Origin: Corynebacterium faecale
Lineage (GTDB): Bacteria > Actinomycetota > Actinomycetes > Mycobacteriales > Mycobacteriaceae
Length of the DNA stretch: 64,000 nucleotides
Assembly (NCBI RefSeq): GCF_030408735.1
Contig: NZ_CP047204.1
Location: 2,666,001-2,730,000 of the forward strand
Direction of reading: 5' to 3'
Shown here: one piece after another, positions 430 to 63,555 of the stretch
How the letters are laid out: each line of letters begins with the position of its first letter
How positions within the stretch are numbered: position 1 is the first letter of the stretch
Notes under the pieces: generated by a model
The model's database searches: none
What the model was told of the DNA's origin: nothing
The model's input: only the letters and a program-made list of their open reading frames with translations
Translations under genes and position numbers: made by a program

Positions 430-706
430 GAAGCATCGTCTAGTCCTGGTGGGCCTCCCGCGGCGGTCGGTAATCCAGTGACGAGTGCAGCCGGCGACTG
501 TTGTACCACCCAATCCACTTCGAGGATTCCACCAAAACATCTGTTAAAGATGGCCACGTCCCGCTGATCGATAAGCTCCGCCTTGAACACTTCAATTCAA
601 TTCAATGCCTCAGCCATCGCATTGTCATAAGAGTCCCCCTTGGATCCCACCGAGGCAACTACGTCTGATTCCGCCAGGGTCTCACCGTAGACAATGCTGC
701 GGTATT
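430..706 (-). mobile_element. IS3-family transposase (OrfB) 3' remnant
   Basis: Read on the minus strand this segment gives the end of an IS3-type DDE transposase. Recognisable pieces are QYRSIVYGETLAES, SYDNAMAEA (the second catalytic Asp region), FKAELID and, in another frame, WYNSRRLHSSLDYRPP. The coding frame is broken by a stop and a frameshift at the GAATTGAATTGAAG run near position 600. Only the 3' third of the gene is present. Its 5' edge abuts the terminus of a second IS3 copy in the opposite orientation. Confidence 0.8.
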
Positions 707-710
707 GAAG

Positions 711-1130
711 GACCTGACCCCCGTTTGGTGGACACCTTGAAACCAGCATGATGCTGGGAAAGGTAATCTGCCACCATGCCGATCAAGACCTATTCAGAGG
801 AGTTCAATCGCGACGCCGTCGCCTTGTATGAGAACTCCCCAGGCACCTCGATCCAGACCATCGCCACCGATCTTGGGGTCAATCGCGCCACGTTAGCGAA
901 CTGGGTGAAAAAATACCGCACCACAACTCCCACCGAAACGCCTTCACCAGCCTCGGTGACTGAAGCTGAGCGGATCCGCCAATTGGAACGCGAGGTCAGC
1001 CGCTTGAGAGAAGAGCGCGATATCGTGGCGGAAGGCCGCCAAATATTTTCCCGGCAAGAGACGAGACTTTGATCAGCTTTCGGTTCGTTGATGACACCTC
1101 CAAGACCTATTGTTACGGAGCGCTTTTTGG
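711..1130 (+). mobile_element. IS3-family element, 5' end with orfA and start of orfB
   Basis: The segment starts with an IS3-like terminal repeat (CTGACCCCCGTTTGGTGGAC around 714-733), followed by orfA and the first ~20 codons of orfB (SFRFVDD...). The remainder of orfB is absent because an IS481-family element begins at about 1153. Together with the adjoining 3' remnant it shows that at least two IS3-family copies decayed here. Confidence 0.75.
776..1072 (+). pseudogene. IS3-family OrfA (HTH protein), damaged C-terminus
   Basis: The 98-residue frame begins MPIKTYSEEFNRDAVALY, the standard OrfA opening, with an HTH_Tnp_1-type helix-turn-helix (about residues 20-50) and a leucine-zipper-like segment containing RLREERDIV. 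Intact OrfA proteins continue with a (R)KAAKYF-type motif. Here one extra G in the GTGGCGG run at about 1024-1030 shifts the frame and gives a wrong tail. The downstream OrfB is truncated, so no active transposase can be made by frameshifting. It belongs to the IS3 remnant that surrounds it. Confidence 0.75.
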
Positions 1131-1152
1131 TAGCGCAGTTGGGTCTATCCGG

Positions 1153-3279: not shown

Positions 3280-3379
3280 TACAAAACCCGGGGCTTGCCA
3301 GTCGACTGAGCTGATCTGGTCTCACACCCTCACGCACGCCAGGATGCTATGCCGTGCGCAATACACAGAAGACAGCGAA

Positions 3380-3421: not shown

Positions 3422-3462
3422 TTAACTTATCACTGCCTGATGAACGCTTCTCAGACCCAGCT

Positions 3463-11204: not shown

Positions 11205-11214
11205 GTGAATTCTC

Positions 11215-11880: not shown

Positions 11881-12881
11881 GACAGCACCTCCACATCCAA
11901 TCCTTCAAGCCCCGATGCCCAGTTGGCGGCCTCGATGGCTTTGTCCCCCTTGATGCCGAGCACGAGTGTGCCCACGGTGGTGCGGCGCAGCGGCGCCTCG
12001 GTGGCGTTCAACAGGGAGATGGACACATTGAAATTTGTGGCCATGTCGGTGATGAGGTCACGCGCCGCGCGTTCCCGGTAGGTCACACGCACGGCGGTGC
12101 CGGCGCGCCCCGAGGCGATGTCATCGGCGACATCTTCAGGCAGGCGGCTGGGCACGACGGTATCCACAAAGCGCCTGGTGAGCGGTTGCTGAGGCTTGGA
12201 AAAGACCTTATCGACGGAACCACTTTCTATCAGTTCCCCATATTCCAGAACTGCCACGCCATCAGCAATCTTGGCCACCACATTCATCTGGTGGGTGATG
12301 ATCAACACCGTGACACCGAGCTCTGAATTGATCTTCACAATCAGGTCGAGAATCTGGTCGGTGGTGAGAGGGTCGAGGGCGCTGGTTGGTTCGTCGCAAA
12401 GCAGGATCTTTGGCCTGGTCACCAACGCACGGGCGATGCCGACGCGCTGCTGCTGACCACCGGAAAGCTGTTTCGGGCGGTTGGCCGCACGGTCTGCAAG
12501 ACCGACGAGCTCAAGCGATTCAGCGACCCGCTTATCGATCTCGCGTTTGGGAACACCCGCGATCACCAGCGGCATGGCGACATTCTCCGCGACGGTCCGT
12601 GATGCCAGCAGGTTGTAATGCTGGAACACCATGGACACATTCGAACGCAGGTTACTGAGATCCTTCACACCGAGTTTCGCCGGTTCAACGCCGAGGACCT
12701 CGACCACACCGGAGGTCGGTGTTTCGAGGCCATTGACGGTTCTGATCAGTGTGGATTTGCCTGCACCTGAGGTGCCGACCACCCCGAAGATCTCACCCTC
12801 GGGGACATCCAGGCTGATGTTCTTCAGCGCATGGAGGTCCCCGTAGTTCTTAGAGACGTTCCGAAAAGAAACAGCATGCAT
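11877..12881 (-). CDS. metN: Methionine ABC transporter ATP-binding protein MetN
   Basis: The 334-residue ATPase has Walker A GTSGAGKST (36-44), signature LSGGQQQRVGIARAL, Walker B ILLCDEPTSALDP and an H-loop TLIITHQM-type segment. The last ~80 residues form the NIL domain. In MetN of E. coli this domain binds methionine and inhibits transport when the cell is replete. The gene overlaps metQ by one base and metI by four. With MetI and the lipoprotein MetQ it powers methionine uptake. Confidence 0.93.
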   Translation of the reverse strand: MHAVSFRNVSKNYGDLHALKNISLDVPEGEIFGVVGTSGAGKSTLIRTVNGLETPTSGVVEVLGVEPAKLGVKDLSNLRSNVSMVFQHYNLLASRTVAENVAMPLVIAGVPKREIDKRVAESLELVGLADRAANRPKQLSGGQQQRVGIARALVTRPKILLCDEPTSALDPLTTDQILDLIVKINSELGVTVLIITHQMNVVAKIADGVAVLEYGELIESGSVDKVFSKPQQPLTRRFVDTVVPSRLPEDVADDIASGRAGTAVRVTYRERAARDLITDMATNFNVSISLLNATEAPLRRTTVGTLVLGIKGDKAIEAANWASGLEGLDVEVLS

Positions 12882-15903: not shown

Positions 15904-15924
15904 TCTTCTTTCGCTTCGGCACAT

Positions 15925-16184: not shown

Positions 16185-17195
16185 ATGAAGCAGGAACAGC
16201 ACCCCGACATCCCCCACAACCCGGACAACGATGCGGAAGCACCACCCGTCGCGGTATCCACGCAACCTGTGGGCAGCGAAGGCAAACGCGTTCACATCAA
16301 GGAAGTGCCCGTCTGGTCACTCGGAGCCGGCCCGACAGCGATCGTCCTGATCCTTCTCCTCGCCGTCCTGATCGCCACTGTTGTCACCGGGATCAGCGCG
16401 ATCAACTCCCTGGAAAGCACCGGTGGTGCGGAAGGCCTGGCCGGACTGATCGTCTCGATCGTGTTGTTCATCATCGCCACCGTCGTCCTGTCCACCTCCA
16501 TCAAGGTGGTCAGCCCCGGACATACTCTGACCACGCAGTTCTTCGGCCGCTATATCGGCACCCTGCGCCGCACAGGCCTGTCCTTTGTTCCGCCCCTGAG
16601 CGTGACCAAACGCGTCTCGGTGCGTGTCCGCAATTTTGAAACCGAAGAGGCCAAGGTCAACGATTACAACGGCAACCCGATCAATATCGCCTCCATCATC
16701 GTGTGGCAGGTCGCCGATACCGCGCAGGCGAGCTTCTCCGTCGAGGATTATGAAGAGTTTCTGACCCAGCAGGCCGACTCAGCCCTGCGCCATGTGGCGA
16801 CGCAGCACCCCTATGATGCGCCGGTCGACGGCCGCATTTCCCTGCGCGGTTCCACGGAAGAGGTTTCAAGAGAGCTTGCCGACGAAGTGGCCGCCCGCGC
16901 CGCCGTTGCCGGCATTGAAATCATCGAGGCCCGCATTTCATCGTTGAGCTACGCCCCGGAAATCGCTCAGGCCATGCTGCAGCGTCAGCAGGCGGCAGCC
17001 ATTGTTGATGCACGTGAAACCATCGTCGAAGGCGCTGTCACCATGGTCGAGTCCGCCCTCGACCAGTTGCAGGAGCGTGACATCGTGGACCTGGATCCGG
17101 AACGCCGCGCCGCGATGGTCTCCAATCTCCTGGTGGTGCTGTGCTCCGATAACAATGCCCAGCCCATCGTCAACGCCGGCAGTCTCTACCACTAG
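16185..17195 (+). CDS. SPFH (stomatin/prohibitin-like) membrane protein
   Basis: The 336-residue protein has an acidic N-terminus, two adjacent hydrophobic helices (about 46-72 and 84-106), and then a stomatin/flotillin SPFH domain with SPGHTLTTQFFG, a VRNFETEEAKVNDYNGNPI segment and the coiled ELADEVAARAAVAGIEI stretch. SPFH proteins form large membrane scaffolds linked to proteases and envelope stress. GAAGGGA stands eight bases before the ATG. It leads a unit with a ribbon-helix-helix-like protein and tag. The same arrangement occurs in C. glutamicum next to hmp, where the gene has been called ppmA (from memory). Paired palindromes upstream suggest tight regulation. Confidence 0.85.
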   Translation: MKQEQHPDIPHNPDNDAEAPPVAVSTQPVGSEGKRVHIKEVPVWSLGAGPTAIVLILLLAVLIATVVTGISAINSLESTGGAEGLAGLIVSIVLFIIATVVLSTSIKVVSPGHTLTTQFFGRYIGTLRRTGLSFVPPLSVTKRVSVRVRNFETEEAKVNDYNGNPINIASIIVWQVADTAQASFSVEDYEEFLTQQADSALRHVATQHPYDAPVDGRISLRGSTEEVSRELADEVAARAAVAGIEIIEARISSLSYAPEIAQAMLQRQQAAAIVDARETIVEGAVTMVESALDQLQERDIVDLDPERRAAMVSNLLVVLCSDNNAQPIVNAGSLYH

Positions 17196-17393: not shown

Positions 17394-17986
17394 GCACCAT
17401 CATTGGCCCGGATGGACTGGCCCGACCACCCTGGGCCGCCACCGATCCCCTGCTCATGCAGTACTACGACACCGAGTGGGGCATGCCCGTCCGGGATGAA
17501 CAGGGCCTCTTCGAACGCATTTCACTGGAGGCTTTCCAATCCGGACTCTCATGGGCGATCATCCTGCGTAAACGACTCGCCTTCCGTGAGGCTTTTTGTG
17601 ATTTCGATCCTGAACGGGTGGCGGCGTTCACTGAAGCAGACGTCGATAAGCTTCTGGCCGAGCCAGCCATCGTGCGCAACCAGCGCAAGATCCGCGCCAC
17701 CATCAACAACGCCAAAGCCACCCTTCTCCTGCGGGAGAAGGGTGGCCTGGTGGATTTTGTGTGGGGGTTCCAACCGGCAGACACACCCCGGCCGGAGACC
17801 CCGGAGGAGGTGCCCACACAATCAGCTGAATCCCTCGCGCTGTCAAAAGCGCTGAAGAAGGAAGGGTTCAGCTTCGTGGGGCCCACCACCATGTTCGCTC
17901 TCATGGAGGCGATCGGGATGGTGGACACCCACCTATTGGCCAGCCACCGGCGGGGTAGTTCTGGGATCTGGCCTGGAGCCGCTTAG
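17390..17986 (+). CDS. tag: DNA-3-methyladenine glycosylase I
   Basis: The 198-residue enzyme matches Tag. It has MQYYDTEWGMPVRDEQGLFE near the N-terminus (contacting 3-methyladenine), LEAFQSGLSWAIILRKR, and GFSFVGPTTMFALMEAIGMV with DTHL at the end. Tag removes 3-methyladenine from alkylated DNA as the first step of base-excision repair. Family members usually keep Cys/His zinc ligands at both ends; the N-terminal Cys is absent here, though H-rich LASHRR is present. The start overlaps the small upstream gene, and the 3' end overlaps hmp convergently by four bases. Confidence 0.88.
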   Translation: MSTIIGPDGLARPPWAATDPLLMQYYDTEWGMPVRDEQGLFERISLEAFQSGLSWAIILRKRLAFREAFCDFDPERVAAFTEADVDKLLAEPAIVRNQRKIRATINNAKATLLLREKGGLVDFVWGFQPADTPRPETPEEVPTQSAESLALSKALKKEGFSFVGPTTMFALMEAIGMVDTHLLASHRRGSSGIWPGAA

Positions 17987-19414: not shown

Positions 19415-20011
19415 ATGGGTAAACAGTTTCCGGGAGATCCCCACGTACGGGTCAGTGACACTGAGCGATCAGCAGCACTCGCAGCACTCAGCCAGTTCTA
19501 TGCAGAGGGCAGACTCTCCATGGAGGAAACCGACGAACGCTGCAACGCGGTTGCCGGTGCCAAAACCCGCGATGAGCTCAACAAACTGTTCACAGACCTG
19601 CCCCAGACTGAAGTCGCAGTGGCCGGAAACAGGGAAATGACATTCACCGCCACAGAAGTGGACAACCTCCATAAGCGGGGGGCACGTCCCCGCGCCGGCA
19701 TCCTCGGACTCACCACCGTCGGTTCCCTCACCACCGCAACCATTCTGGCCACCACCACCCCGGCGGCCTGGGCGCTGCTCGCCCTGATTCCCGTGGTGTT
19801 CATCCTCCTCTATGTGATGAAGGTCGGCCCAGCTGACTGGTACGCCCCCAGTGCCCGCCAGCTGGAACGCGAACGCATGGAGGAATTACGCAAGGAGGAA
19901 AAACTCCGTGACCTGGAGATGCGTGCCCGCCGAAAGGAACTGACCCACTCCCTCACCCACAAGGCACTCAAGGCTGCAGAGAGCGCCATCCCCACCAGGA
20001 AGAAGCGGTGA
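19415..20011 (+). CDS. DUF1707 membrane-associated protein
   Basis: The 198-residue protein begins with a DUF1707 (SHOCT-like) domain: VRVSDTERSAALAALSQFYAEG and RLSMEETDERCNAVAGAKT, about 10-60. A hydrophobic hairpin (about 100-140) and a highly charged coiled C-terminus (ERMEELRKEEKLRDLEMRAR) follow. DUF1707 occurs widely in actinobacteria, often next to a membrane segment; its function is unknown. The start MGKQFPGD is chosen because GGAA precedes it by five bases. Upstream in-frame ATGs lack such a site. It is divergent from hmp. Confidence 0.8.
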   Translation: MGKQFPGDPHVRVSDTERSAALAALSQFYAEGRLSMEETDERCNAVAGAKTRDELNKLFTDLPQTEVAVAGNREMTFTATEVDNLHKRGARPRAGILGLTTVGSLTTATILATTTPAAWALLALIPVVFILLYVMKVGPADWYAPSARQLERERMEELRKEEKLRDLEMRARRKELTHSLTHKALKAAESAIPTRKKR

Positions 20012-20758: not shown

Positions 20759-20781
20759 CCCCCACGCTTATCGACGAACCG

Positions 20782-24593: not shown

Positions 24594-24695
24594 CTAGAGA
24601 TGTCTGGGGGCATCACACCGAAAATTCCCGCGGGGTGGAAATCGGGCGGTATTTGCGTCGTCAAGCAATCTTTAATCAATTGTTATATACAGCAA

Positions 24696-26712: not shown

Positions 26713-26800
26713 TTCAGCGCTTCCATAAGCGAAGCTCCACCTGCGGAGACGAGGTGGCCGGCCAGCCACGGGCCACGGGAAGGGCGCCACAACAACCCAA

Positions 26801-27979: not shown

Positions 27980-28036
27980 AGACTGCTCCTCAGCTCAATC
28001 CGCTTATGGAGAACCCTGGGGTCACCCCGGGAGCCT

Positions 28037-33490: not shown

Positions 33491-36400
33491 ATGAACCGGC
33501 CCCTTCCGGCCTCACCTGGCCACTCCCTGCGGCGTCTTGTTTCAGGTGTTCATGTCCCGGTGTGGCTGATTCTGGGGTTGATCGCGTTTCTCCAGCCTCC
33601 CGGGCAGGTGGCCGCCGATACCAAACTTGATCTGGTGCTCAATCCCGCAGGTTTTCTCGGCGGCGCGCTGCACGCCTGGACGGATGATTTCACCCTGGGG
33701 CAGTTGCAGAACCAGGCCTATGGGTACCTCTTCCCCCAGGGTCTCTTCTTCCTTCTCACTGATCCGCTCCCCGATTGGATAGCCCAGCGCCTGTGGTGGT
33801 GGATGGTGCTGGGCATTGGGTTCTCCGGCTTCTACCTGCTGTTATCCAAGCTCAGCGTAGGTTCCATACCGTTACGCGTCATAGCGGCGTTGCTCTATGC
33901 GTTATCGCCGCGCACGCTGACAACACTCACCGCGATCTCATCCGAGACCTGGCCCGCGATGGTGGCACCGTGGATTTGCCTGCCGCTGCTGGATAAACGC
34001 ATCAACGCCCGCAGCATAGCCCTCTCGCTCATCCCGGTGGCGGCCATCGGCGCGGTCAACGCCACCGCCACCCTGGCGGCGTTGGTGCCTGCCGCACTGA
34101 TCATTGCTTATCGACGCCACTGGCTCCACGGCCTGGCGTGGTCAGCTGGCGTGCTGGCGGTCAACGCCTGGTGGATCGGCCCCCTCCTGATACTGGGCCG
34201 CTACGCACCACCCTTCACGGAATTCATTGAGAGCGCAGCGGTCACCACCAACTGGCTCAATCCCGTGGAGATCCTCCGTGGCACCACCAGTTGGACCCCA
34301 TTCGTGGACACCGAACGCCAGGCCGGTTACCTGCTGGTCAACAACCCACTGTTTGTCATGCTCACGGTACTGGTGGCGGCTCTGGGTCTGGCTGGCCTCA
34401 CGCTTATGGAACGCAGGGGATTATGGGCGCTCATGTTGGCGGTTGGGCTGTTGATCCTGGGCGCTACCCAACTGGAGGCGGTGCAGACCTTCCTTGATGG
34501 CCCCGGTGCGGCGCTGCGCAATATCCATAAATTCGACCTGCTGGTCAGGATGCCACTGCTGGTGGGGGTGGCGGCACTGGGTTCATATATCGCGGTGCCA
34601 CGTGATCTGATCCCAGGCAGGCGGGAAGCCGTGGGAATTCTTGTCATTCTGGTTGCTGTCGGCTCCATCGCGCCGGCGTGGTCCGGTCGCCTACTCCACC
34701 GCGGCACCTGGGAGGAAATTCCCGCCTACTGGTATGAGGCCACTGAGTTCCTCAACCGGGAGGCAGCCGGAACCCGCACGCTCATCCTGCCCAGCTCACC
34801 CTTCGCCCGTCAGGACTGGGGATGGACACGTGATGAACCAGCCCAACCATTACTTGATGTCCCCTGGGCTGTCCGTGATGCCATCCCACTGGTTCCCCCG
34901 GAGGCGATTCGTGGACTGGACGGCCTGGATTCCCTCGGCCCGGATCTTAACGACGAAGCCCTGAAACGCCTGGGGATCGGGGCGGTGATCGTGAGGCATG
35001 ACCTGGAAGCCGGGCCGGAAACGCGAACGATCCCTGAACTGGGCGGACAGAAAACCACCTTCGGTGAGGTGGATGTGCATCTCCTGGACACTGACCGCAG
35101 CATGTGGCTGGCGGATGCCGAGGTGCCCACCGTGGCCGGCGGTGGTGAGATCCTGTCACTGCTGGATACCGTCAACGGGCATTCCCCACGCAGACTCGTG
35201 GCCGGCGGTGCCGATATCGTCACCGACACTCCCCAACTGGTGGGCACCAACTACGGCGATGGGCAGTCCTCTGCCGCCTTGGCGGATCTCTCAGAGACAG
35301 AGGTGCGGAACCGTATCGTAGATTACCCCTCCACCGGGCCCATGACGCAGGTGGCCACAGAGGGTTCCATAAGCGTGTCGTCCTCCGCATCTGATGCCAC
35401 CAGTTTCGGCGGATCGAATCCAGCTCGCTCACCAAACGCCCTGGTTGATGGCCGAACCACCACAGCCTGGTACCCCACACCGGGTGATGTGGAGCCCTGG
35501 ATGAAGATCTCAGGCTCCGGAACCACTCTTGATGTCATGCCGACCGATAACGTCACCGTGACGGTGACTTCCGGTGGTTCGGTGACCGTCCGCGAATTGA
35601 CCAAGGGCGAGTGGACCACTTTTACTCTGCCTGAACCTGACGCACGGATTGATCTGGACCGATATGCCGGCATCGCCGAGATCAGCATGGAAGGACTCTC
35701 CCGGACGATCACGGTCCCCGACACCTCACCCGATGTACAGCAGTTCATCTTCCAACGACTCACGGTGCCCACACCCCACCTGGACCGCGCCTTCACCGCA
35801 CCCCGGGCTATGACCGTGACGGTTGACGCTGAATCCTGTCGCAATATTGAACTCAATGGCGAACGCGTCGATTGCGGGGTCGTGGAACTTCCCCAGGGGG
35901 ATCACCTCCTGCGCACCAGCTCGGAATGGGTCACGCTCACCGCGATGGCTCCGACCGCAGGAGCCGTCCCCACCGGCCCCATGGTGTCCGCGGCGGATAC
36001 TGACCGTCTGCTTCTCACCTCCCGCGCCTTCAACCCGGGGTCACAGGCGTTCATTCAGGATCAGCGTCTTGTCGCAGAGGAAGTGGATGCAGCCGCACAG
36101 GCATTTGTCATTCCTGCCGGGGTGTCCGGAGAGGTTTCTTTCCGCTTCGCCGGCGAGCTGCCTTATCGGATCAGTCTATTCACCGGCGCGGGTCTAGCGA
36201 TTCTTGTCATTTCAGGATGCCTGGTGTTTGTCCGCCGTCCCTCTGAGGGAGGCTCCTTTCAGGATCAGGGCGACGCCCCCCTTGCTGCCTTGCTGTTACT
36301 TCCGGTCTTCGGATGGTGGTTGCTTCCCGCTGTGGCTGCCTGGCTCGTCCCCCGTTTCACCCTCATCCCCCGATGGGTTCTTGCATTGGCCCCCATCACC

Positions 36401-42963: not shown

Positions 42964-43672
42964 CACGCAGGTCGGCAGCCCCCAGGCGCTGCTGACCATG
43001 CTCCACCTGACAGATTCCGCGCTCCCCACCGGCGGGTTCAGCCACTCCCTGGGACTGGAGAACTATCTGCAGCGTGACATTGTCAACTCACCCGACACGT
43101 TTTCCCGCTGGATGTATGCCTATATCCGACAGGCGAGTTTCAATGACGCACTCGTCGCAAAGCTCACTGCGGAGGCCGTAAGGCAACCGCATGCCGACGC
43201 CGTCAAGGAACTCGCGCAATTGGATGCGCTGGCGCACACCACGTTGGTGCCGCGCCAGATCCGCGACGCGAACGCGTCGATGGGTGGGCGGATGGTCAAG
43301 ATCATCGAGGTGGCGGTTCCTGATCACCCGCTGGTCCAGTGGTACGCCGAAGCGGTCCGCGACGGACATGCCTACGGCTGCCCGGCGCTGGCGCATGGTT
43401 TGGCGCTGAGCGCGGTTGGTCTGGATACCGAGATGGTGGTGCGGAGCTACCTGATGCAGACCACCGCATCACTCACCCAGAACACCATCCGCGGTATCCC
43501 CATCGGACAAAATGCAGGTCAGAAGGTCCTCGTCGGGTCCTACCCTGTGATCGAGGAAGCCGTGGCCACCACCATGGGACACGGTTACCTGGATCTCGGT
43601 GCCGCGGCCCCCGGGCTGGAAATTGCACAGATGCAGCACGAATCCCTCCGCTCGCGAATGTTCATGTCTTAA
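42944..43672 (+). CDS. ureF: Urease accessory protein UreF
   Basis: The 242-residue protein has the UreF landmarks LTDSALPTGGFSHSLGLEN, MGGRMVKI, YGCPALAHGLAL and a C-terminal conserved LDLGAAAPGLEIAQMQHE. UreF regulates the UreG GTPase during nickel insertion. ATG 42944 lies inside the end of ureE, with GAGG nine bases upstream; the overlap suggests coupling. Confidence 0.92.
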   Translation: MPSTPTDTQVGSPQALLTMLHLTDSALPTGGFSHSLGLENYLQRDIVNSPDTFSRWMYAYIRQASFNDALVAKLTAEAVRQPHADAVKELAQLDALAHTTLVPRQIRDANASMGGRMVKIIEVAVPDHPLVQWYAEAVRDGHAYGCPALAHGLALSAVGLDTEMVVRSYLMQTTASLTQNTIRGIPIGQNAGQKVLVGSYPVIEEAVATTMGHGYLDLGAAAPGLEIAQMQHESLRSRMFMS

Positions 43673-45258: not shown

Positions 45259-45588
45259 AAGCACCACACGCCCGGCAAGCCCTTCCATAAGCGAAACAGG
45301 CGGGGCGAAAGGTTCCGGTGTGATCTGGGTAAGCAACCGGTGCGGGTGGTTTCCTTGGCGGGCGCGGTGAGGGCCGCTCCCGCCGCCAGCTGCACCTCTC
45401 ATCTGGACAGGATCATCCGGTTGTCTTGCCGTGCCGTGCTGTTGTCTTGCCGTGCCGTGTCGCTGTCTTCCTGCAGCCTGCCCTACAACCCCTTTTGTGC
45501 AACCTTTTTGGCCGCCTCGGTCCAACCAGCCCGGCGCGCCTGGGTACGCTCTCAGTACAGATATGAGGGGAAGGCTCCGGGAACCATC
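45259..45588. other. Intergenic region with a 21-bp tandem repeat
   Basis: These 330 bases hold no supported gene. A TCCATAAGC motif copy lies at 45284-45292, 26 bases after ureD. A 21-bp unit (GTTGTCTTGCCGTGCCGTGCT) is repeated twice at 45420-45461. TACAGAT at about 45557 is a possible -10 for the GNAT gene. Confidence 0.45.
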
Positions 45589-49542: not shown

Positions 49543-49571
49543 AAACTGCTTTTCGACGAACCCCCTCCTCC

Positions 49572-50137: not shown

Positions 50138-51208
50138 TCAAGCGACCTTCTGGGATGTCCTCTCCCGGACCCAGCGCAGCACGGGTTCTTCCACGAGGGT
50201 GTAACTGGCTGCAGCCACGGGCACGGTGATCACCGTCGTCGTGATGAGGACGAGCAGAAAATCCCCACTGAACAGGTTGAGCCCCAGCAGTGGGAACACG
50301 ATGGTCAACACCGGCAGGTGCCACAGGAAGATGGAATAAGACCACTTTCCCATCGCCCTCATGATCCCGGTGTTGAGCAGGCGTGAGGGTGTGCCCAGGG
50401 CATAGGGAACCACGATGAATGCGGCGAAGGCTGTGCCTGCGAGGATCCTCATCACGAATTCCCCCGGGGAGGGATGGATGAGCCCGAGGGGGCCAAACCA
50501 TTCCTGCCCGGCGATCCACGCCGTCGATAAGCTTAAAAACCACCAGACCACGCTGGGCACGCGCGGAAAGCGCACGCCCTCGAACTCTGCGGCGAGCATG
50601 CCCACGGCGAACCAGCAGGCATAGGCTGGCGGCCAGATCTGCAGGTTGGGCCACCCGTTGGCGATGGAGTTTTCCACCATAGGCAAATAGGCCCACCCCA
50701 GGCTGAGCACCGCACCCGCCACAATCAACCCGATGCGGGCGCGCCGCCCGAACCGCCCCAACACCACCGCCAGCAGCGGCACCACCAGATAGAAGGCCAT
50801 TTCCACACACAGGGACCACAGGTGGGTCAGGCCGGTCATGAGGCCACCGACCACATAGATCTGCGTCATGGTCAGATTAGCCAGCCACGGACCCGCGGGA
50901 ATGAACAACAGGACCGTTGCCACCGTCAGCCAATAGGCCGGCAGGATCCTGGCCATCCGCTTCAGGTAATACACACCTGGCGCATTGCTGTCGCGTCGCC
51001 GCCACAGCACAAAAGCCGACAGGGCGAAGAACACCGCCACGAAGAAATCAAACCGCGCGAGGAGACTCCCCAGGGTGCCCGCAGGGTCCATTCCTGTCTG
51101 GAAGGCTGCATGCGTGGCCAACACCCCGAGGGCCGCAATCGCGCGGAGCCCCTCGAGTGAGCTGATGAAGCCGACCGTTCCGGGGGCTGCGTAGGATTGA
51201 TGAGACAT
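50138..51208 (-). CDS. Acyltransferase 3 family membrane protein
   Basis: The 356-residue protein has about ten helices with the acyltransferase 3 signature: SSLEGLRAIAALGVLATHAAF (His acceptor), FFALSAFVLWRR, RMARILPAYWL and THLWSLCVEMAFYLVVPLL. Members O-acylate surface glycans or lipids. No SGNH domain is attached. The start ATG has no clear Shine-Dalgarno site. It is divergent from the PorA-like gene with only 41 bases between, so the promoters overlap. Confidence 0.88.
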   Translation of the reverse strand: MSHQSYAAPGTVGFISSLEGLRAIAALGVLATHAAFQTGMDPAGTLGSLLARFDFFVAVFFALSAFVLWRRRDSNAPGVYYLKRMARILPAYWLTVATVLLFIPAGPWLANLTMTQIYVVGGLMTGLTHLWSLCVEMAFYLVVPLLAVVLGRFGRRARIGLIVAGAVLSLGWAYLPMVENSIANGWPNLQIWPPAYACWFAVGMLAAEFEGVRFPRVPSVVWWFLSLSTAWIAGQEWFGPLGLIHPSPGEFVMRILAGTAFAAFIVVPYALGTPSRLLNTGIMRAMGKWSYSIFLWHLPVLTIVFPLLGLNLFSGDFLLVLITTTVITVPVAAASYTLVEEPVLRWVRERTSQKVA

Positions 51209-53586: not shown

Positions 53587-54703
53587 AGGGAAGGCGGGAG
53601 GAATCCGCCGGTGCCAGCGATGCCAAAAGCTCCTCGAACTGCTCTCCGGCAATATCCCAGGAGTAGGACCGTGCCCGCTCGGCGGCGCGCTGGCCCAGAA
53701 GGGTGCGGGAGGGGGCGTCGATAAGCAGGGTACGTACCCCGGCGATCAGCTCAGCCTTGGAATCAACCAGCACACCCGTCTGGCCGTCAATGATGGAATC
53801 CCGCAGGCCACCGGAGCTGCGGTAGCCGATGGTGGGCACTCCGTGTTGCGCGGCCTCGACCACCGCCAGGCCCCACCCTTCCTTGCGGGAGGGCATGAGA
53901 TGGACGGCGGCGCGGCGCAGCAGGGCATGTTTATGATCTTCCGCCACCTGCCCGTGGAAGGTCACACGATCCGATACACCGAGGTCACGGGCATAGTCAC
54001 GGAGCTGCTCATCCCACCAGCCGCTACCCACCACATCAAGGTGCACGCCTTCAATGGCGGCCACCACGTCCATAGCATGCTCAATCTGCTTATGGGGCAC
54101 CAGGCGCGACAGCGTGACCAGGTGGATACCGTCCTCATCCAGGCGGGGGATATGCGCCGGCACCGGATCCAGCCCATTGCGGATGAGGTGGATGCGCGGG
54201 GCATCCACGCCGAGCTCCACCAGCTCATCACGGCTGGGCGCAGACACCGTCACATACGGTGCCGCGCGGTAGGCCCGCGGTGCGACGCGGCTCTCTAAGA
54301 ACCAGCCCACCGGCGCCAAGAGCTTGCCGACGACCGGCCACTGCTCCCGATGACAATGGTGGGTGAGCAACACCGTCGGTTTCCCGGAGAAGAACCTCCC
54401 GAAAAACGGGATGCCATTCTGGGTATCCACCACCACATCCACCCCACGGAAGGTCCCCAGACCCATACGGCCCAACAGCATCGCAGCCCAGGCCTTCGGG
54501 TACACGCTGAACTTCCCACCGCTGAGTGAATAACGCACCCCACCACGCATGGCGCGCCGGGGCGCATCTGTGTGGCCGGCGGTGCGGTAGACCACCTCAT
54601 GGCCCTGCCTGGCCAGGTACTCGCCCACCCTTTCCAGGTAGCGTTCACTACCGCCACCCTGGGGGTGGGTGGATTCACGCCAGCACAACAGAAGGATCTT
54701 CAT
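53585..54703 (-). CDS. GT4-family glycosyltransferase
   Basis: The 372-residue GT-B enzyme has GGGSERYLERVGEYLARQGHEV near the start, LTHHCHREQWP, VTVSAPSRDELVELG, TLSRLVPHKQIEHAM and the donor motif LMPSRKEGWGLAVVEAAQHGVPTIG (EX7E). It likely transfers a sugar from a nucleotide donor to an envelope acceptor. No signal peptide or helix is present, so it acts at the inner membrane face. The start MKILLLCW is at the standard family position. The gene is upstream of no operon partner on its strand. Confidence 0.88.
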   Translation of the reverse strand: MKILLLCWRESTHPQGGGSERYLERVGEYLARQGHEVVYRTAGHTDAPRRAMRGGVRYSLSGGKFSVYPKAWAAMLLGRMGLGTFRGVDVVVDTQNGIPFFGRFFSGKPTVLLTHHCHREQWPVVGKLLAPVGWFLESRVAPRAYRAAPYVTVSAPSRDELVELGVDAPRIHLIRNGLDPVPAHIPRLDEDGIHLVTLSRLVPHKQIEHAMDVVAAIEGVHLDVVGSGWWDEQLRDYARDLGVSDRVTFHGQVAEDHKHALLRRAAVHLMPSRKEGWGLAVVEAAQHGVPTIGYRSSGGLRDSIIDGQTGVLVDSKAELIAGVRTLLIDAPSRTLLGQRAAERARSYSWDIAGEQFEELLASLAPADSSRLP

Positions 54704-56433: not shown

Positions 56434-57203
56434 GTTTTCCCCGCACGCGCAATTTCGCCACGCTCCGCCGTGCTATCGGTTTGCTCCGCGATTTCCGCTT
56501 CGAGCAGACCCGGCCCGACATCTTCTACGGCAACCTTGCCACGGACACCGCTGAGCTCGTGGCCGCCCTGATCGCTGACCTTAAACCCTCCACGGGCAGC
56601 CCTGCCCTGGATGGGCAGTTGATCCTCGATGTCGGTGGTGGACCCGGCTATTTCGCTGATGCCTTCCATAAGCGGGGCGCCACCTACCTTTCGGTGGAAC
56701 CCGATGTGGGTGAGATGTCAGCAGCGGGCATCGATGTCACCGGTTCGGTGCGGGGCTCCGGGTTGGATCTTCCCTTCCGCGACGATGCCTTCGATGTGGT
56801 GTATTCCAGCAATGTGGCTGAACACGTGCCCGATCCTTGGCGGATGGGTGAGGAGATGTTGCGCGTCACCCGTCCCGGTGGCGTGGTGATCCTGAGTTAT
56901 ACCATCTGGCTGGGGCCCTTCGGCGGTCACGAGACCGGGTTGTGGGAGCACTATGTGGGCGGCCATTTCGCCCGTCGACGCTACGAGAAGAAACACGGAC
57001 ACCCACCGAAGAATGTCTTCGGGGAGTCCCTGTTCGAAGTCTCCTGCACTGAGGGCCTGGACTGGGCCCGGCAGGTCGAAGGCGCCCGTCTTGCAGTGGC
57101 TTTCCCCCGCTACCACCCGTCTTGGGCCTGGTGGATGGTGAAGGTACCGCTCCTGCGGGAATTCCTGGTGAGCAATCTGGTGCTCGTCCTGGTGAGGGAA
57201 TAA
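56430..57203 (+). CDS. Class I SAM-dependent methyltransferase
   Basis: The 257-residue protein has motif I LILDVGGGPGYFADAFHKRG (about 63-82), YLSVEPD (acidic ribose-binding residue), DLPFRDDAFDVVYSSNVAEHVPDP and RPGGVVILSY. This is the UbiE/Methyltransf_11 pattern. The target is unknown; proximity to envelope genes suggests a lipid or glycan. The start is TTG, overlapping the previous stop. It lies next to pck as in C. glutamicum (from memory). Confidence 0.88.
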   Translation: MSFPRTRNFATLRRAIGLLRDFRFEQTRPDIFYGNLATDTAELVAALIADLKPSTGSPALDGQLILDVGGGPGYFADAFHKRGATYLSVEPDVGEMSAAGIDVTGSVRGSGLDLPFRDDAFDVVYSSNVAEHVPDPWRMGEEMLRVTRPGGVVILSYTIWLGPFGGHETGLWEHYVGGHFARRRYEKKHGHPPKNVFGESLFEVSCTEGLDWARQVEGARLAVAFPRYHPSWAWWMVKVPLLREFLVSNLVLVLVRE

Positions 57204-57249: not shown

Positions 57250-57266
57250 GCGGTTAACAAAGATGC

Positions 57267-58226
57267 TTAACGACGAGGGGCAGTGCCGCCGTCGATATCG
57301 CGGTCAAGATCATGGTCGACTGCTCCGTCGATGTCCACTTCCTCGTGAGCGACATCTTCGCTGACGGTCTCAGTGCCACGGACGGTCTCCTTCTGCAGGC
57401 TGACCTCCTCAACCGGCACCGTTTCCTTGGTCACATTGACGCGCTCCTCAGAGAGGGTCACGGATGCCTCTTCGTCGTGCAGACCCTCGCCCCGGAGAGT
57501 ATCGGCGCGGTCTGCATCAACTGGGGTGCGCTCGATGCGGACCTCTTCACGCTGTACCGGAACCTCGACGGTCTCGGTGTCGTGGACAACGTGCTTGCGC
57601 AGACGTACCTCGCCGGTTTCCACCCGCTGCTTGTCCACGTTGAGTCGCTCCTCGGACAGGGTGAGGGAATCCGCCTCGTGTGCAGCTGGTGAGACATCCA
57701 CCTCCGCCTGATCGTGGTCGCGGTCATGAACGTCGCGGTCACGGTCGTGCAGAGCGCCACCGGCGAGACCGGCTCCACCTGCAAGACCCGCTCCACCCGC
57801 AAGACCTGCAGCATCGCGGTCACGGTCATGTGCGGCTCCGTCGGTCACACCGGCGGTATCGCGGGCACCACGATCGTGATCGCGGAGATCCGAACCGTAG
57901 GTTTCCACGTTCTCGGTGCCCTCCAGGCCGTAGTGGCGGTAAATGGTCGCCTGGTCATCGTTGGAGAGATGCGCGTCGGAATCAAAGTCTGGGGCATCGG
58001 AGATGCGGTCCTTGGTGAAGGCCAGTCGCAGTTCTTCACCCGCAAGCTGGTGGCCACGCAGTGGTACCAGGCTGGAGCTCATTCCGAAAAGGCCGTGGCC
58101 GACCTCAACAAACTCTGGCTGATCGGAGGTGTCATTGACGTAGACCTCCTTGACGGATCCAAGCTTGTCGCCATTGCTGTCATAAGCGGTGGCGTTGAAA
58201 AGGTCGTTGATGTTGCGGGTGTTCAT
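57267..58226 (-). CDS. PRC-barrel/DUF2382 stress protein
   Basis: The 319-residue protein has an N-terminal PRC-barrel (about 1-75: LFNATAYDSNGDKLGSVKEVYV...VEVGHGLFG) and a middle linker rich in Gly/Ala and Asp/Arg (HDRDRD, GLAGGA repeats). A C-terminal DUF2382 domain has two halves with LTLSEERLNVDKQRVETGEV and VTLSEERVNVTKETVPVEEV. Proteins of this type accompany stress and stationary-phase genes. GGGAGA lies six bases before the ATG. The GLAGGAGLAGGA repeat (about 57770-57800) is a small DNA tandem repeat. Confidence 0.88.
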   Translation of the reverse strand: MNTRNINDLFNATAYDSNGDKLGSVKEVYVNDTSDQPEFVEVGHGLFGMSSSLVPLRGHQLAGEELRLAFTKDRISDAPDFDSDAHLSNDDQATIYRHYGLEGTENVETYGSDLRDHDRGARDTAGVTDGAAHDRDRDAAGLAGGAGLAGGAGLAGGALHDRDRDVHDRDHDQAEVDVSPAAHEADSLTLSEERLNVDKQRVETGEVRLRKHVVHDTETVEVPVQREEVRIERTPVDADRADTLRGEGLHDEEASVTLSEERVNVTKETVPVEEVSLQKETVRGTETVSEDVAHEEVDIDGAVDHDLDRDIDGGTAPRR

Positions 58227-58722
58227 GAAATTCTCCCTTTTTCTAGATGTTTTTCATTCATCCCGGATCCTGCATTGGCGGTGTTGTGAACCGTGAACGT
58301 CTGTTTCTCAACCCGAGATGCTGACACCGCCCAGTGTATGGATAAGCACCGATGCAAGTATGACGCACAACACATAAACAGTATCTTCTAGATGCTTGCG
58401 CAGTTCACATCCAGGCGATTGCCAGTCCCGGCCCCCAGGCCCCGGGATCACCCACCACAGGACAAGCAACCTGCGGCCCCCGAATCCGCCGGTCAAACCC
58501 GCGCCACCCCTCCACCCGAACCCTCGACCCCCAATCCCACACCGAATTACTTCCTGAATATGTACACAGGAGAAGATTTCCAGTTAAGAATCGCGGCCTT
58601 GTCGGATTTCCCCCTCCCGGCCCCACAGAACGAGGAACGAAACAACCCCATATCCACCCTCCCGCTTATGGAAGGTGGATATGGGGTTGTTGTTCAGTCA
58701 GCACACGGCCAACAGGCGTTAC
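58227..58722. other. Intergenic region before the PRC gene and after pck
   Basis: No coding sequence is supported in these 496 bases. The first ~150 contain the leader of the PRC gene. The GC-rich middle (58420-58560) is proline-codon-like in all frames without a start. The pck terminator is at 58641-58691 and contains a TCCATAAGC motif copy in its loop. Confidence 0.4.
58641..58691. terminator. Long hairpin terminator of pck
   Basis: AACAACCCCATATCCACC pairs perfectly with GGTGGATATGGGGTTGTT (18 bp). The 15-base loop reads CTCCCGCTTATGGAA. It starts about 30 bases after the pck stop on the minus strand. Confidence 0.88.
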
Positions 58723-61076: not shown

Positions 61077-62233
61077 GTCACTCTCCCACTCTGTCGGGAC
61101 TGCTCATGCACCCATCCGAACGGACCCCGGCGATGACCAACGCCCTCACTGGTTGTATCCAGTGAGAGCATGTGGGCTGCCTGATCCCACCATGTGCGGA
61201 CCCGTCGCTGGTGATGCCTGAACACGTGCATCCCCACGATCCCCAGCACAACAGGCAGCAGATCCACCCGGATCACGCACACTCCGACGATCAGTCCCGC
61301 CGCTGCAGCCAGATACCCGGTGGGAAGCCTCGGTTCCGGAGGCAGCACCTCCCCGTGGAGCTTCGCCAGTTCGCGCATGCCCCGCCGGTCGCCTGACCGG
61401 TGCAGCTGGTGGATCTGCGCCTGCCGCGCCAACCGCATCCGGTCATGGGCCTGGATCCATTTCCCGGTTGGTACAACCGGGATCTCCCACCCGGCGGGGT
61501 GGCCGGCCACCCGGGCGATGGTGTCCACCAGATCACTGCCGGCGGGAACCGCCTGCGGGCACATGCCCGCAGGCAGGGGCGACAGGACAACCAGACGCCC
61601 CACGCGGTGCCAGGCGTCCTGGATGATGGGGGCGTCGATAAGCATGAAACCCCGGCCACCGGGAACCGCGACCACCACATCAGCATCCGCCGACTCCACC
61701 ACCGTGACATGGGGACGCAGGCGGGCACGCACATCATCCACCTGCCCCGGGTCCGGGCCGATCACCACCACACGGGGCAGAGGTGTCTCCGCCGGCCCCA
61801 TCGCAGGAACCAATGCCGTGAGCTGGGGAAACCTCGTGGCCAGCGCCCGGATCCCACCGGAGAGCAGCTGCTCACGGACCTCCACCAACTCAGAAACCCC
61901 AATCGTGTAATTCTCGGCTTGTTCCTTATCTTCTATGTGCACAAATTTCTGGGGCCCGGTGCGCATGCGGGAGCGCACCCTCCCGGGGAGGTCGCCGGGG
62001 TGTACGAGCAGGATCACATCAGCGCCTGAACCCACTGCCGGCCAGGTGGTCCGCACCATGATCGCGCCCGGGATCACCACCTGCACCGGCGCATCCACCG
62101 TGCACACGCCGATCCGCGGCGGGCCGGTGAGCTCATGGAGCAGCTCCCGCACGGCCATGCCCGCGGGATCACCGAAAGGGCGCCCCTCCGCCCACGCGGC
62201 CACCGCCCGGAAAATCGCCGGTACTGAAGTCAT
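61073..62233 (-). CDS. Unknown protein with a C-terminal membrane hairpin
   Basis: The 386-residue protein has a soluble N-terminal ~290 residues, with VVIPGAIMVRTTWPAVGSGADVILLVHPGD and a receiver/Rossmann-like stretch PRVVVIGPDPGQVDDVRARLRPHV. A hydrophobic hairpin (about 300-340) and a basic tail RHHQRRVRTWW follow. No family is recognised. GAGGGGAAGG lies close before the ATG. It is translationally coupled to the DUF6802-like gene and divergent from the TDT transporter. Confidence 0.75.
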   Translation of the reverse strand: MTSVPAIFRAVAAWAEGRPFGDPAGMAVRELLHELTGPPRIGVCTVDAPVQVVIPGAIMVRTTWPAVGSGADVILLVHPGDLPGRVRSRMRTGPQKFVHIEDKEQAENYTIGVSELVEVREQLLSGGIRALATRFPQLTALVPAMGPAETPLPRVVVIGPDPGQVDDVRARLRPHVTVVESADADVVVAVPGGRGFMLIDAPIIQDAWHRVGRLVVLSPLPAGMCPQAVPAGSDLVDTIARVAGHPAGWEIPVVPTGKWIQAHDRMRLARQAQIHQLHRSGDRRGMRELAKLHGEVLPPEPRLPTGYLAAAAGLIVGVCVIRVDLLPVVLGIVGMHVFRHHQRRVRTWWDQAAHMLSLDTTSEGVGHRRGPFGWVHEQSRQSGRVT

Positions 62234-62381
62234 CGCCTCCCCTTCCCCTCATCACACCCCTCACCCCATCACACCCCAGCCGGCGCGCGCCCGCAACAGG
62301 TACGCGGCGCAGATCGGACGCCATGATCACAAACCGCCCCATAACTACCGTTTGTCAGACGTCGGTCCTACTGTGTGGGGC

Positions 62382-63470
62382 GTGTCCCGATTCCCTCTCA
62401 CCCTGCCCACCTTTGTCAAAAACCGTCGCAGGTACACAGCTGTGCTGCCTCCGGCGGGTCCGGCATGGGCGGGTTCGCTGATGGGAACGGCATCCACCGC
62501 ATCGCTGCTGGGTCTGCATGGATTTGATACTGCAGCCGGTGCGATGCTGGCGATCGCGATAGCCGTCACGGTGATCATCACCGTGGGGTGGTTGGTGTAC
62601 CGCACCCCGGGTTTCACACCCCAGGTCATGCCCGCATGGGCGATGGTGTCCATGGGTGTGGTGTCCATGGGCACCGCCGTCATCACGGTGCTGGATGAGC
62701 AGCACCACCCGGCTACATGGTGGTTCCTCTTCGGTTGCTGCGTTGTCGGCGGCGCCCTGGGGCTGGTCACCTGCCTGGTCTATTTGAGACTCCTGATCAC
62801 CGGCCGCGCCGGATCGCCGACGTTCTCCTGGGGCCTGCCGCTGGTCACGCCCATGGTGACCGCCACCTCCGGCATGCGTGTGCATGGCTGGTTGGACAGC
62901 ATCAATGTGGACGATGGGTACACCACCTTCATCTGGTGGCTGTCCCTGGGCGCATTCACCCTCAGTCTGGTGCTGGCACCGGTGGTGTTCGCACGGGTCT
63001 ACTACTTCTACTTCGGGCCGCGGACCCACCGGTCGGCGCAGAACCGCCTGGAGCCGATGGCCGCGCCCACGATGTGGATTCCGCTCGGCATCATCGGCCA
63101 GTCGACGGCCTGCGCTCAGCTTCTCACCGCCGCTTCCGGCCAGGGAGGGCTGGGAAACTTTTATGGTTTTGTCATGTGCGCGGTGGCGGTACCCGTCGCA
63201 TTACTGGCCGCGACGGTGCATTACCAGGCCGCATTGCGCGGCATCAGTTACAGCCCGACCTGGTGGGCCAGCACCTTCCCGGTGAGCACCCTCAGCCTGG
63301 GCACGTGGTGGTTATCGGCATCAACGGGGCTCGAATGGCTGAACTGGGTCAGCCTGTTTTTGCTGGTCATTCTACTCTTTCACGCCGGTGTGGCCACACT
63401 CGGCGGTACCATTGCCCTCATGCGCAAAATGGTGCGCAGGCTGCGTGCGGTGACCGGTGGTCACCGCTGA
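62382..63470 (+). CDS. TDT-family (tellurite-resistance/dicarboxylate) transporter
   Basis: The 362-residue protein has ten helices in the SLAC1/TehA/Mae1 arrangement, with PPAGPAWAGSLMGTASTASLLGLHG and the Phe/Trp-rich middle WGLPLVTPMVTATSGM. TDT members pass C4-dicarboxylates, sulfite or tellurite-linked ions. The neighbouring pck makes a dicarboxylate link attractive but unproven. GTG 62382 is seven bases after TACTGT (leaderless); GTG 62373 is an alternative. A TCGATAAGC copy lies four bases after its stop. Confidence 0.82.
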   Translation: MSRFPLTLPTFVKNRRRYTAVLPPAGPAWAGSLMGTASTASLLGLHGFDTAAGAMLAIAIAVTVIITVGWLVYRTPGFTPQVMPAWAMVSMGVVSMGTAVITVLDEQHHPATWWFLFGCCVVGGALGLVTCLVYLRLLITGRAGSPTFSWGLPLVTPMVTATSGMRVHGWLDSINVDDGYTTFIWWLSLGAFTLSLVLAPVVFARVYYFYFGPRTHRSAQNRLEPMAAPTMWIPLGIIGQSTACAQLLTAASGQGGLGNFYGFVMCAVAVPVALLAATVHYQAALRGISYSPTWWASTFPVSTLSLGTWWLSASTGLEWLNWVSLFLLVILLFHAGVATLGGTIALMRKMVRRLRAVTGGHR

Positions 63471-63555
63471 GATGCTTATCGACGCCGCGCCAGTCCGCCA
63501 TGGACGACTGTGCGCGGATTGAAGTTTCTCGACTGAACAGGAAAAATGATTCTTA

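What the first reader, a model, noticed from the sequence alone, without database searches (positions are those of the whole stretch)
568..63482. Over-represented 9-mer TCSATAAGC across the whole window
TCGATAAGC or TCCATAAGC (either strand) occurs at least 17 times: 568, 12530(-), 17643, 19668, 20766(-), 26722, 28002(-), 34106(-), 34402(-), 35366, 45284, 50524, 53718, 56665, 58664(-), 61635, 63474(-). About one hit is expected for such a degenerate 9-mer in 64 kb. Longer forms CGTCGATAAGC (7 times) and TTCCATAAGCG (5 times) are even less likely by chance. The six intergenic copies lie close to gene 3' ends (for example 4, 8, 23 and 26 bases after stop codons, or in terminator loops). That is how DNA-uptake sequences are placed in Neisseria and Haemophilus. 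Recombination (Chi-like), chromosome-orienting or nucleoid-protein sites are other options. I know of no such described motif in Corynebacterium.
Basis: partly seen in the sequence, partly recalled or inferred. Interest (0 to 1): 0.72.

Follow-up and report, generated by a model that had tools for sequence, protein, structure and literature searches.

The report
Genus-wide self-DNA mark in Corynebacterium
The repeated 9-letter word turns out to be two different signals: a mark found hundreds to thousands of times on the chromosomes of most Corynebacterium genomes examined but not on the plasmids and phages examined, possibly telling own DNA from foreign DNA, and a second word clustered around one gene for a DNA-cutting enzyme.

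Summary
The count is right (17 copies against 0.53 expected), but TCSATAAGC pools two signals.

(1) TCGATAAGC is part of CGTCG-NN-AAGC, preceded on its 5' side by about 30 G-rich bases. The host has 889 copies (reversed-pattern control 38). Of 201 Corynebacterium genomes, 139 carry 280 to 1,964 copies. Another 13 use a second dialect, CATCG-NN-AAGC. A tree shows dialect 2 nested inside dialect 1, and at some orthologous places the core differs only by that one base. The motif occurs within and between genes, shows no replication-strand bias in the two genomes sampled, is kept between species beyond permuted controls, and is at chance on five plasmids and two phages.

(2) TCCATAAGC (TCCATARRSG) forms a halo that decays over about 100 kb around a DUF222-HNH nuclease gene in 4 of 4 related species examined. 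The window lies in a distant, unexplained secondary cluster.

My best reading of (1) is a DNA-uptake-type self mark, the first in an actinobacterium as far as I know. A Chi-like signal for a non-RecBCD enzyme is the main rival (RecC: 0 of 201 genomes). The reader protein is unknown. Tad and ComEC genes also occur in genomes without the motif, and inverted pairs, typical of DUS, are rare here. The halo suggests a nuclease with its own local mark.

The parts
12392..12402 (+). motif 1, CGTCGCAAAGC
16874..16884 (-). motif 1, CGTCGGCAAGC
17641..17651 (+). motif 1, CGTCGATAAGC
20766..20776 (-). motif 1, CGTCGATAAGC, intergenic, G-rich 5' tract
24656..24666 (+). motif 1, CGTCGTCAAGC
32472..32482 (+). 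motif 1, CGTCGACAAGC, G-rich 5' tract
34106..34116 (-). motif 1, CGTCGATAAGC, inside an AftD-like gene
43153..43163 (+). motif 1, CGTCGCAAAGC
49548..49558 (-). motif 1, CGTCGAAAAGC, G-rich 5' tract
50522..50532 (+). motif 1, CGTCGATAAGC
53716..53726 (+). motif 1, CGTCGATAAGC, G-rich 5' tract
54322..54332 (-). motif 1, CGTCGGCAAGC
57265..57275 (-). motif 1, CGTCGTTAAGC
61633..61643 (+). motif 1, CGTCGATAAGC, G-rich 5' tract
63474..63484 (-). motif 1, CGTCGATAAGC, intergenic
568..576 (+). TCGATAAGC without the CG prefix (probably chance)
12530..12538 (-). TCGATAAGC without the CG prefix (probably chance)
19668..19676 (+). motif 2, TCCATAAGC
26722..26730 (+). motif 2, TCCATAAGC, intergenic
28002..28010 (-). 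motif 2, TCCATAAGC, intergenic
34402..34410 (-). motif 2, TCCATAAGC
35366..35374 (+). motif 2, TCCATAAGC
45284..45292 (+). motif 2, TCCATAAGC, intergenic
56665..56673 (+). motif 2, TCCATAAGC
58664..58672 (-). motif 2, TCCATAAGC, intergenic, in the loop of a terminator-like hairpin (by eye)

Best explanation
Motif 1 (about 30 G-rich bases, then C[G/A]TCG-NN-AAGC) is a DNA-uptake-type self-recognition mark of the genus Corynebacterium. A DNA-binding protein that meets naked or incoming DNA reads it and favours DNA that carries it, so copies are gained and held at permissive places along the chromosome by biased transfer (molecular drive) and are not gained by plasmids and phages. Shown: the motif and its extended flank, the genus-wide copy numbers, dialects and in-place switching, conservation beyond control, chance-level counts on the plasmids and phages examined, no strand bias in two genomes. 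Motif 2 (TCCATARRSG) is a separate, more local mark concentrated around a DUF222-HNH nuclease gene. I infer that this protein reads it.
For: Core fixed at 9 of 11 positions with free NN: 149 found against 3.6 expected in 464 kb of the host, 140 against 6.8 in 240 kb of G148, 105 against 5.0 in 155 kb of five others. G-rich tract on the 5' side in sense, antisense and intergenic copies alike and in dialect 2. Genus: 139 of 201 genomes have 280-1,964 copies, each at least 3.7 times its reversed-pattern control; 62 have 8-134. Dialect 2 exceeds 150 copies in 13 of those 62; G142 has both, 352 + 1,337. Other genera near control: CGTCGATAAGC 0-7 in 140 genomes; 16 motifs in 413 kb of 20 Mycobacterium loci against 446 in 1,207 kb of 60 loci kept as Corynebacterium. 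At 3 of 7 alignable sites C. tuberculostearicum CGTCGNNAAGC reads CATCGNNAAGC in KPL1814; against C. kefirresidentii 8 of 8 sites are kept. Dialect 2 is nested in dialect 1 on a dnaN tree. Sites kept 70 of 99 in 18 non-overlapping species pairs against 605 of 1,376 for permuted patterns, P=3e-7. Five plasmid records and phage BFK20: 4 copies in 287 kb, 4.4 expected by chance; phi673 0. Host small contigs 3 in 75 kb, about 24 expected at chromosomal density. No strand bias: 142 leading of 286. Density and an extended motif of about 40 bp resemble USS/DUS (recalled). A T2SSE/TadA-type ATPase is in 198 of 201 genomes, ComEC in 200 of 201, and a Tad locus in all 14 loci I chose to look at.
Against: TadA-type ATPase, ComEC and the Tad locus are also present in motif-low genomes, so no competence gene that I tested tracks the motif; the TadA matches of many motif-low genomes were only weaker (best E about 1e-39 to 1e-47), which may be phylogeny. 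[quoted passage not shown] The paper listings I saw held no report of natural transformation in Corynebacterium (0 papers; 15 listed of 74). The G tract lies on one strand and one side only, which a double-strand-binding receptor does not obviously need but a strand-reading recombination enzyme might. 49 of 201 genomes show neither dialect 1 nor dialect 2. The hosts of the five plasmids and two phages were not themselves scored for the motif.
Confidence: 0.42

Rival explanations
1. Motif 1 is a Chi-type signal of a non-RecBCD resection enzyme (AdnAB or a relative). The enzyme runs in from the 3' side, stops cutting at CGTCG-NN-AAGC and leaves a 3' tail whose last 30 bases are the G-rich tract, a good RecA loading stretch. 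DNA with the mark is repaired, foreign DNA is degraded.
For: The one-sided G tract lies where the retained 3' tail would be. The motif is chromosomal, at chance on the plasmids and phages examined.
Against: No replication-strand bias in two genomes (142 of 286), whereas E. coli Chi is strongly biased (recalled). Nine fixed bases is longer than known Chi sites (recalled). AdnAB itself was not searched for here.
Confidence: 0.27
2. Motif 1 is a chromosome-architecture or nucleoid-protein site, or a replication-linked site, bound all along the chromosome.
For: Chromosomal and dispersed; in the host denser in the 200 kb to the right of dnaA (5-13 per 20 kb) than in the other stretches sampled, those left of dnaA included (3-8 per 20 kb); spacing more even than random in 2 of 5 tests (CV 0.72, P=0.003; CV 0.60, P=0.006), not in the other 3.
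Against: No orientation bias. In-place dialect switching across hundreds of sites is hard to explain without a process that spreads sites. G148 shows no origin gradient.
Confidence: 0.16
3. Mutational or codon-usage artefact.
For: 64% of in-gene copies sit in one antisense frame (549 of 863), a frame of tolerable codons.
Against: Copies in genes are about 12-37 times a 3-periodic Markov expectation in the six sets tested, and all six frames are used in the host; intergenic copies keep the motif and G tract; plasmids at chance; sites conserved beyond control.
Confidence: 0.03
4. Motif 2 is a domain or anchoring mark of the origin-proximal chromosome rather than a mark tied to the DUF222-HNH gene.
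For: In the host 87 of 96 TCCATAAGC sites lie within about 302 kb of the origin, including a second cluster at 2.685-2.736 Mb that contains the window's copies; a search with the DUF222 protein found no such gene in the window or the next 8 kb.
Against: Density peaks at the gene, not at the origin: 11 sites within 2 kb of it, 25-30 per 10 kb, falling to 0.03-0.06 per 10 kb beyond 500 kb. The orthologous gene sits at the peak in G144, G156 and C. pacaense.
Confidence: 0.3

Closest known systems
DNA uptake sequence (DUS) of Neisseriaceae, with dialects (PMC3630211, abstract text and passages seen)
   Same: Short core at high chromosomal density, dialects that follow the species tree, intragenic copies common
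   Different: Actinobacterium; no ComP type IV pilin known (recalled, not searched for); spaced core with two free bases; 30-base G-rich 5' tract; few inverted pairs; uptake never tested
Uptake signal sequence (USS) of Haemophilus influenzae (recalled, and named in PMC5217627 passages)
   Same: Core plus an extended flank of about 30 bases on one side (recalled); about 1 per 1-1.5 kb in the densest genomes
   Different: Flank here is G-rich and upstream, not AT-rich and downstream (recalled); unrelated core
Chi sites of RecBCD/AddAB (recalled)
   Same: Asymmetric, chromosomal, species-specific, G-rich neighbourhood
   Different: No RecC in 201 genomes; no strand bias; longer, spaced core
matS, parS and ram-type regional sites (recalled)
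   Same: Motif 2 is regional, like these domain marks
   Different: Non-palindromic, graded around a nuclease gene, includes close inverted pairs

Membership tests
DNA uptake sequence (DUS/USS) | Short sequence strongly over-represented on the chromosome | tested here: met
   889 against 38 in the host; 139 of 201 genomes at 280 or more copies
DNA uptake sequence (DUS/USS) | Both orientations equally used | tested here: met
   142 leading of 286 in two genomes; 77,454 forward and 77,432 reverse copies over 201 genomes
DNA uptake sequence (DUS/USS) | Depleted in foreign or mobile DNA | tested here: met
   4 in 287 kb against 4.4 by chance, 0 in phi673; host small contigs 3 in 75 kb. Hosts of the named plasmids and phages not scored
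DNA uptake sequence (DUS/USS) | Dialects congruent with phylogeny | tested here: met
   dnaN tree, 3 changes of label against 5.8 shuffled; labels rest on about 20 kb per species
DNA uptake sequence (DUS/USS) | Many inverted pairs acting as terminators | tested here: not met
   15 inverted pairs under 60 bp among 1,088 copies
DNA uptake sequence (DUS/USS) | Presence tracks competence genes or a specific receptor | tested here: not met
   TadA-type ATPase 198 of 201 and ComEC 200 of 201 irrespective of the motif; receptor unknown, other genes untested
DNA uptake sequence (DUS/USS) | Raises uptake or transformation of DNA that carries it | not testable with these tools
   needs an experiment
Chi site | Read by RecBCD | tested here: not met
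   RecC family PF04257 in 0 of 201 genomes; among 14 control genomes it rang in E. coli only
Chi site | Skewed to the leading strand | tested here: not met
Chi site | Attenuates AddAB/AdnAB nuclease | not testable with these tools
   needs biochemistry; AdnAB genes not searched for
KOPS / FtsK-orienting sequence | Strong strand polarity from origin to terminus | tested here: not met
   own 71 leading / 75 lagging, G148 71 / 69
Regional chromosome mark (matS, parS type), motif 2 | Confined to one chromosomal domain | tested here: inconclusive
   Graded halo centred on a gene, plus a second cluster at 2.69-2.74 Mb

The most novel reading that the evidence does not exclude
Corynebacterium carries self-DNA marks each read by a DNA-binding protein that biases DNA transfer towards marked DNA. 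Motif 1 is the end state, spread over the whole chromosome of most of the genus and diverged into dialects.
Probability: 0.15. Interest if true: 0.95.

Novelty: new variant of a known kind. Interest (0 to 1): 0.8.

Why it matters
A genus-wide, dialect-forming self mark in an actinobacterial genus with industrial and human-associated species would be the first of its kind outside Gram-negative uptake-sequence bacteria, as far as I know. It would point to gene exchange by a specific route in bacteria not known (to me) to be transformable, give handles on gene transfer in C. glutamicum, and offer a natural experiment (a one-base dialect switch in genomes with about 1,000 sites) for how such marks evolve. 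The halo around a nuclease gene would be a new kind of gene-linked repeat pattern.

Tried and rejected
Chance: rejected. Codon usage: rejected as a full explanation. RecBCD-Chi: RecC absent. KOPS-type orientation: no bias. Copies placed at terminators as in Neisseria: not general. Presence/absence match with TadA-type ATPase, ComEC or the Tad locus: none. ComEC reading frames were longer in several motif-low genomes but length did not separate the classes. DUF222 presence (148 of 201) does not track motif 1. Local words around 19 other DUF222 genes (20 loci fetched, one of them the positive control L232): one weak candidate (CTCCGAGTT, 6 copies against 0.19, L248); L250's word was one tight cluster; L245's words come from an unexamined repeat; in the rest I saw none beyond motif 1 itself. 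NCBIfam gave only a sub-threshold IscB match and PADLOC none for the DUF222-HNH protein; the PDB sequence search gave only weak matches, E 0.05 or worse. The loci returned were too short for a halo test. A first, pseudo-replicated conservation test (653 of 1,406 kept against 2,547 of 11,127 random places) was replaced by the paired test. TCCATAAGC in G199 (54, control 41) and G149 (38, control 56) was near control and not examined.

Literature (search listings unless said): the words TCGATAAGC/GCTTATCGA are in 587 papers; the 40 listed titles looked unrelated. No paper held Corynebacterium + 'DNA uptake sequence' + overrepresented. Other searches. PMC5217627 (spaced motifs; passages seen) reports CRISPR pairs for three Corynebacterium species in the passages seen and has no CGTCG in its main text; supplements not read. 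PMC3630211: passages. PMC7719229 and PMC8002715: passages, nothing used. Chi, USS, matS, ram and KOPS details are recalled.
Full report
OBSERVATION. TCSATAAGC occurs 17 times in the window at the stated places and strands; shuffles give 0.53 on average and never more than 3. The window is C1:2,666,001-2,730,000 of a 3,147,058-base genome, which holds 180 + 181 copies against 13 + 16 for the reversed pattern. C1 begins at dnaA (first gene, my reading of the protein), so coordinates are distances from the origin. The nearest relatives by dnaN among named species are C. gallinarum (94%) and C. pacaense (85%).

TWO MOTIFS. In 464 kb of sampled host chromosome the two forms have different flanks. 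TCGATAAGC is usually preceded by CG (92% at each base) and by a G-rich stretch. TCCATAAGC is mostly preceded by T or C, often followed by G and a purine, and has no G tract. Their maps differ too: TCGATAAGC is dispersed (133 + 132 copies), while TCCATAAGC (96 copies) clusters near the origin.

MOTIF 1. Single-base variants show that the conserved sequence is CGTCG-NN-AAGC: the two middle bases vary (AT preferred), while most changes elsewhere are near background (exceptions include CGTCGATACGC, 7 against 0.3 in G148). Observed/expected (order-4 Markov): 149/3.6 in the host, 140/6.8 in G148, 105/5.0 in five other genomes pooled. Over the 30 bases immediately 5', G is 0.33-0.50 and C 0.17-0.29 on the motif strand per 10-base bin, near background by -40. 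The tract is present in antisense (368), sense (160) and intergenic (106) copies alike (dnaN loci left out) and in dialect 2, so it belongs to the signal and is not a coding effect.

GENUS-WIDE DISTRIBUTION. Across 201 Corynebacterium genomes CGTCGNNAAGC is bimodal: 139 genomes have 280-1,964 copies, each at least 3.7 times its own reversed-pattern control; 62 have 8-134, five of them above twice their control; controls are 22-107. Host 464 + 425 against 25 + 13. Thirteen of the 62 low genomes carry 159-1,184 copies of CATCGNNAAGC instead; G142 carries both (352 and 1,337); most dialect-1 genomes have under 100 of it, a few up to 159. Sampling of low genomes found dialect 2 directly (51/3.5 in G006, 45/2.7 in G110, 33/2.5 in G178, 32/1.3 in G143). 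It found a possible third form, GTGGCGTCGA, in G147 (16 copies against 0.5; GTGGCGTCG 27 against 2.0), weak GGCGTCG-like words in G015, G033 and G065, and no clear form in G162, G119, G132, G030 and G010. G163, low for TCGATAAGC, has 87 CGTCGNNAAGC in 120 kb against 4.9, so the 9-mer alone undercounts in GC-rich genomes. Forty-nine of 201 have neither dialect 1 nor dialect 2 by these thresholds. Outside the genus the 11-mer CGTCGATAAGC is near control (0-7 copies in 140 genomes of 30 other genera). Twenty Mycobacterium dnaN loci hold 16 motifs in 413 kb against 446 in 1,207 kb of the 60 loci kept as Corynebacterium, one of which (L054) is titled only Mycobacteriaceae.

DIALECT SWITCH AND CONSERVATION. 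C. tuberculostearicum sites (L073) are kept 8 of 8 in C. kefirresidentii (90.9% identity overall). In KPL1814 and C. macginleyi 0 of 7 alignable sites are kept as dialect 1. At 3 of those 7 the KPL1814 core reads exactly as dialect 2; in macginleyi the same three show the G-to-A, but two of them carry a further change in the core. The other four are decayed. On a dnaN tree dialect 2 falls in two places inside dialect-1 lineages (3 changes of label; shuffled mean 5.8, 0 of 500 as low); labels rest on about 20 kb per species and some counts are as small as 2. In 18 non-overlapping species pairs at 79-94% identity, 70 of 99 motif sites keep all nine fixed bases against 605 of 1,376 for permuted patterns of the same letters and gap (P = 3e-7); single permuted patterns with 10 or more sites ranged up to 0.86 kept.

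PLACEMENT. Of 1,088 copies 595 lie antisense and 268 sense in called genes, 218 between genes, 7 across an edge (my own simple gene caller; the dnaN loci are orthologous and so partly redundant). Intergenic shares are given under the observation check. One antisense frame (xxG CTT NNC GAC) holds 549 of 863 in-gene copies. This is more than a 3-periodic codon model predicts in five of six sets and less in G163, so codon tolerance explains much but perhaps not all; all six frames are used in the host. Inverted pairs within 60 bp are rare (15). Replication strand: host 71 leading / 75 lagging, G148 71 / 69, taking the contig start as origin (dnaA in the host; GC skew in G148). Spacing is more even than random in two of five tests and not in the other three.

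SELF VERSUS FOREIGN. Five Corynebacterium plasmid records (two whole, three as their first 50 kb) and phage BFK20 hold 4 copies in 287 kb, 4.4 expected by chance; phage phi673 holds none in 44.5 kb. I did not score the chromosomes of their hosts. The direct test is the host itself: samples of its four small contigs hold 3 in 75 kb, about 24 being expected at chromosomal density. One of these contigs matches MobF/Rep plasmids. A general mutational bias would be expected to mark resident plasmids too.

WHAT READS IT. RecC is in 0 of 201 genomes, so RecBCD is excluded. A T2SSE/TadA-type ATPase is in 198 of 201 and ComEC in 200 of 201, with or without the motif; best E-values for the ATPase tend to be weaker in motif-low genomes, which I did not pursue. 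A Tad locus (TadZ, TadA, TadB, TadC, Flp, mostly TadE) lies next to a DEAH helicase in the 14 loci I chose among the listed matches (3 dialect-1, 5 dialect-2, 6 motif-low genomes; gene names assigned by me from order and sequence). A comEA-like gene next to comEC was seen in the host, G148 and G162. So machinery for uptake exists in both classes, but nothing I tested co-varies with the motif.

MECHANISM, MOTIF 1. Density (about 1 per 1.3 kb in the densest genomes), length, an extended flank on one side, dialects one base apart, self-restriction and lack of strand bias together fit a DNA-uptake-type mark best. Against it: no track with the competence genes tested, few inverted pairs, no known transformation. 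The one-sided G tract and the chromosome-only pattern also fit a Chi-like signal for another resection enzyme. I put uptake at 0.42 and Chi-like at 0.27.

MOTIF 2. TCCATAAGC belongs to a looser family, TCCATARRSG: 37 copies in the 20 kb at 60-80 kb and 2 in 200 kb of bulk chromosome. The peak is a gene (C1:70,989-72,359, minus strand) for a 456-aa DUF222-HNH protein (Pfam). TCCATAAGC density per 10 kb is 25-30 within 2 kb of it, 12 at 2-5 kb, 6-8.5 at 5-20 kb, 1.75 at 20-100 kb, 0.1-0.3 at 100-300 kb, 0.5 at 300-400 kb (the window's cluster) and 0.03-0.06 beyond 500 kb. G144 and G156 show the same shape, with the same spacings (+16, +49 bases) of a site trio that in the host lies in the gene. 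Thus 4 of 4 species examined; they are related, so this may be one event. Close inverted pairs recur here. The window's eight copies belong to a second cluster at 2.685-2.736 Mb; a search with the DUF222 protein found no such gene in the window or the next 8 kb, and the third DUF222 match of the host was not located. That cluster is unexplained.

NOVELTY. The searches listed under Tried and rejected found no description of either motif; supplements and subscription papers were not seen.

Noticed in passing
L004:10989-12359 (host C1:70989-72359): DUF222-HNH endonuclease gene at the centre of the TCCATARRSG halo; orthologues at the peak in G144, G156 and C. pacaense.
   Followed up: yes
window 19668-58664: Secondary TCCATAAGC cluster (10 copies in 2.685-2.736 Mb of C1, 8 of them in the window); no DUF222 gene found in the window or the next 8 kb; unexplained.
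   Followed up: partly
L248 (G187), 4978-19598: CTCCGAGTT occurs 6 times in 20 kb (0.19 expected) around another DUF222 gene, one copy inside it: weak candidate for a second halo.
   Followed up: partly
L127-L132 (G147): Possible third dialect GTGGCGTCGA (16 copies in 120 kb, 0.5 expected).
   Followed up: partly
window 1290-6885: Lower-GC stretch with an integrase-core (rve) ORF and a large ORF with collagen-like repeats; no motif 1 copy.
   Followed up: no
L251-L256 and L182: ComEC reading frames are short (468-569 aa) in G148, G006, G162 and the host and longer (653-755 aa) in G030, G127 and G010; open-frame starts are uncertain.
   Followed up: partly
L183 (host C2): A 104-kb contig whose first 20 kb match MobF/Rep and copper-transport plasmid genes of Corynebacterium and others.
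   Followed up: no
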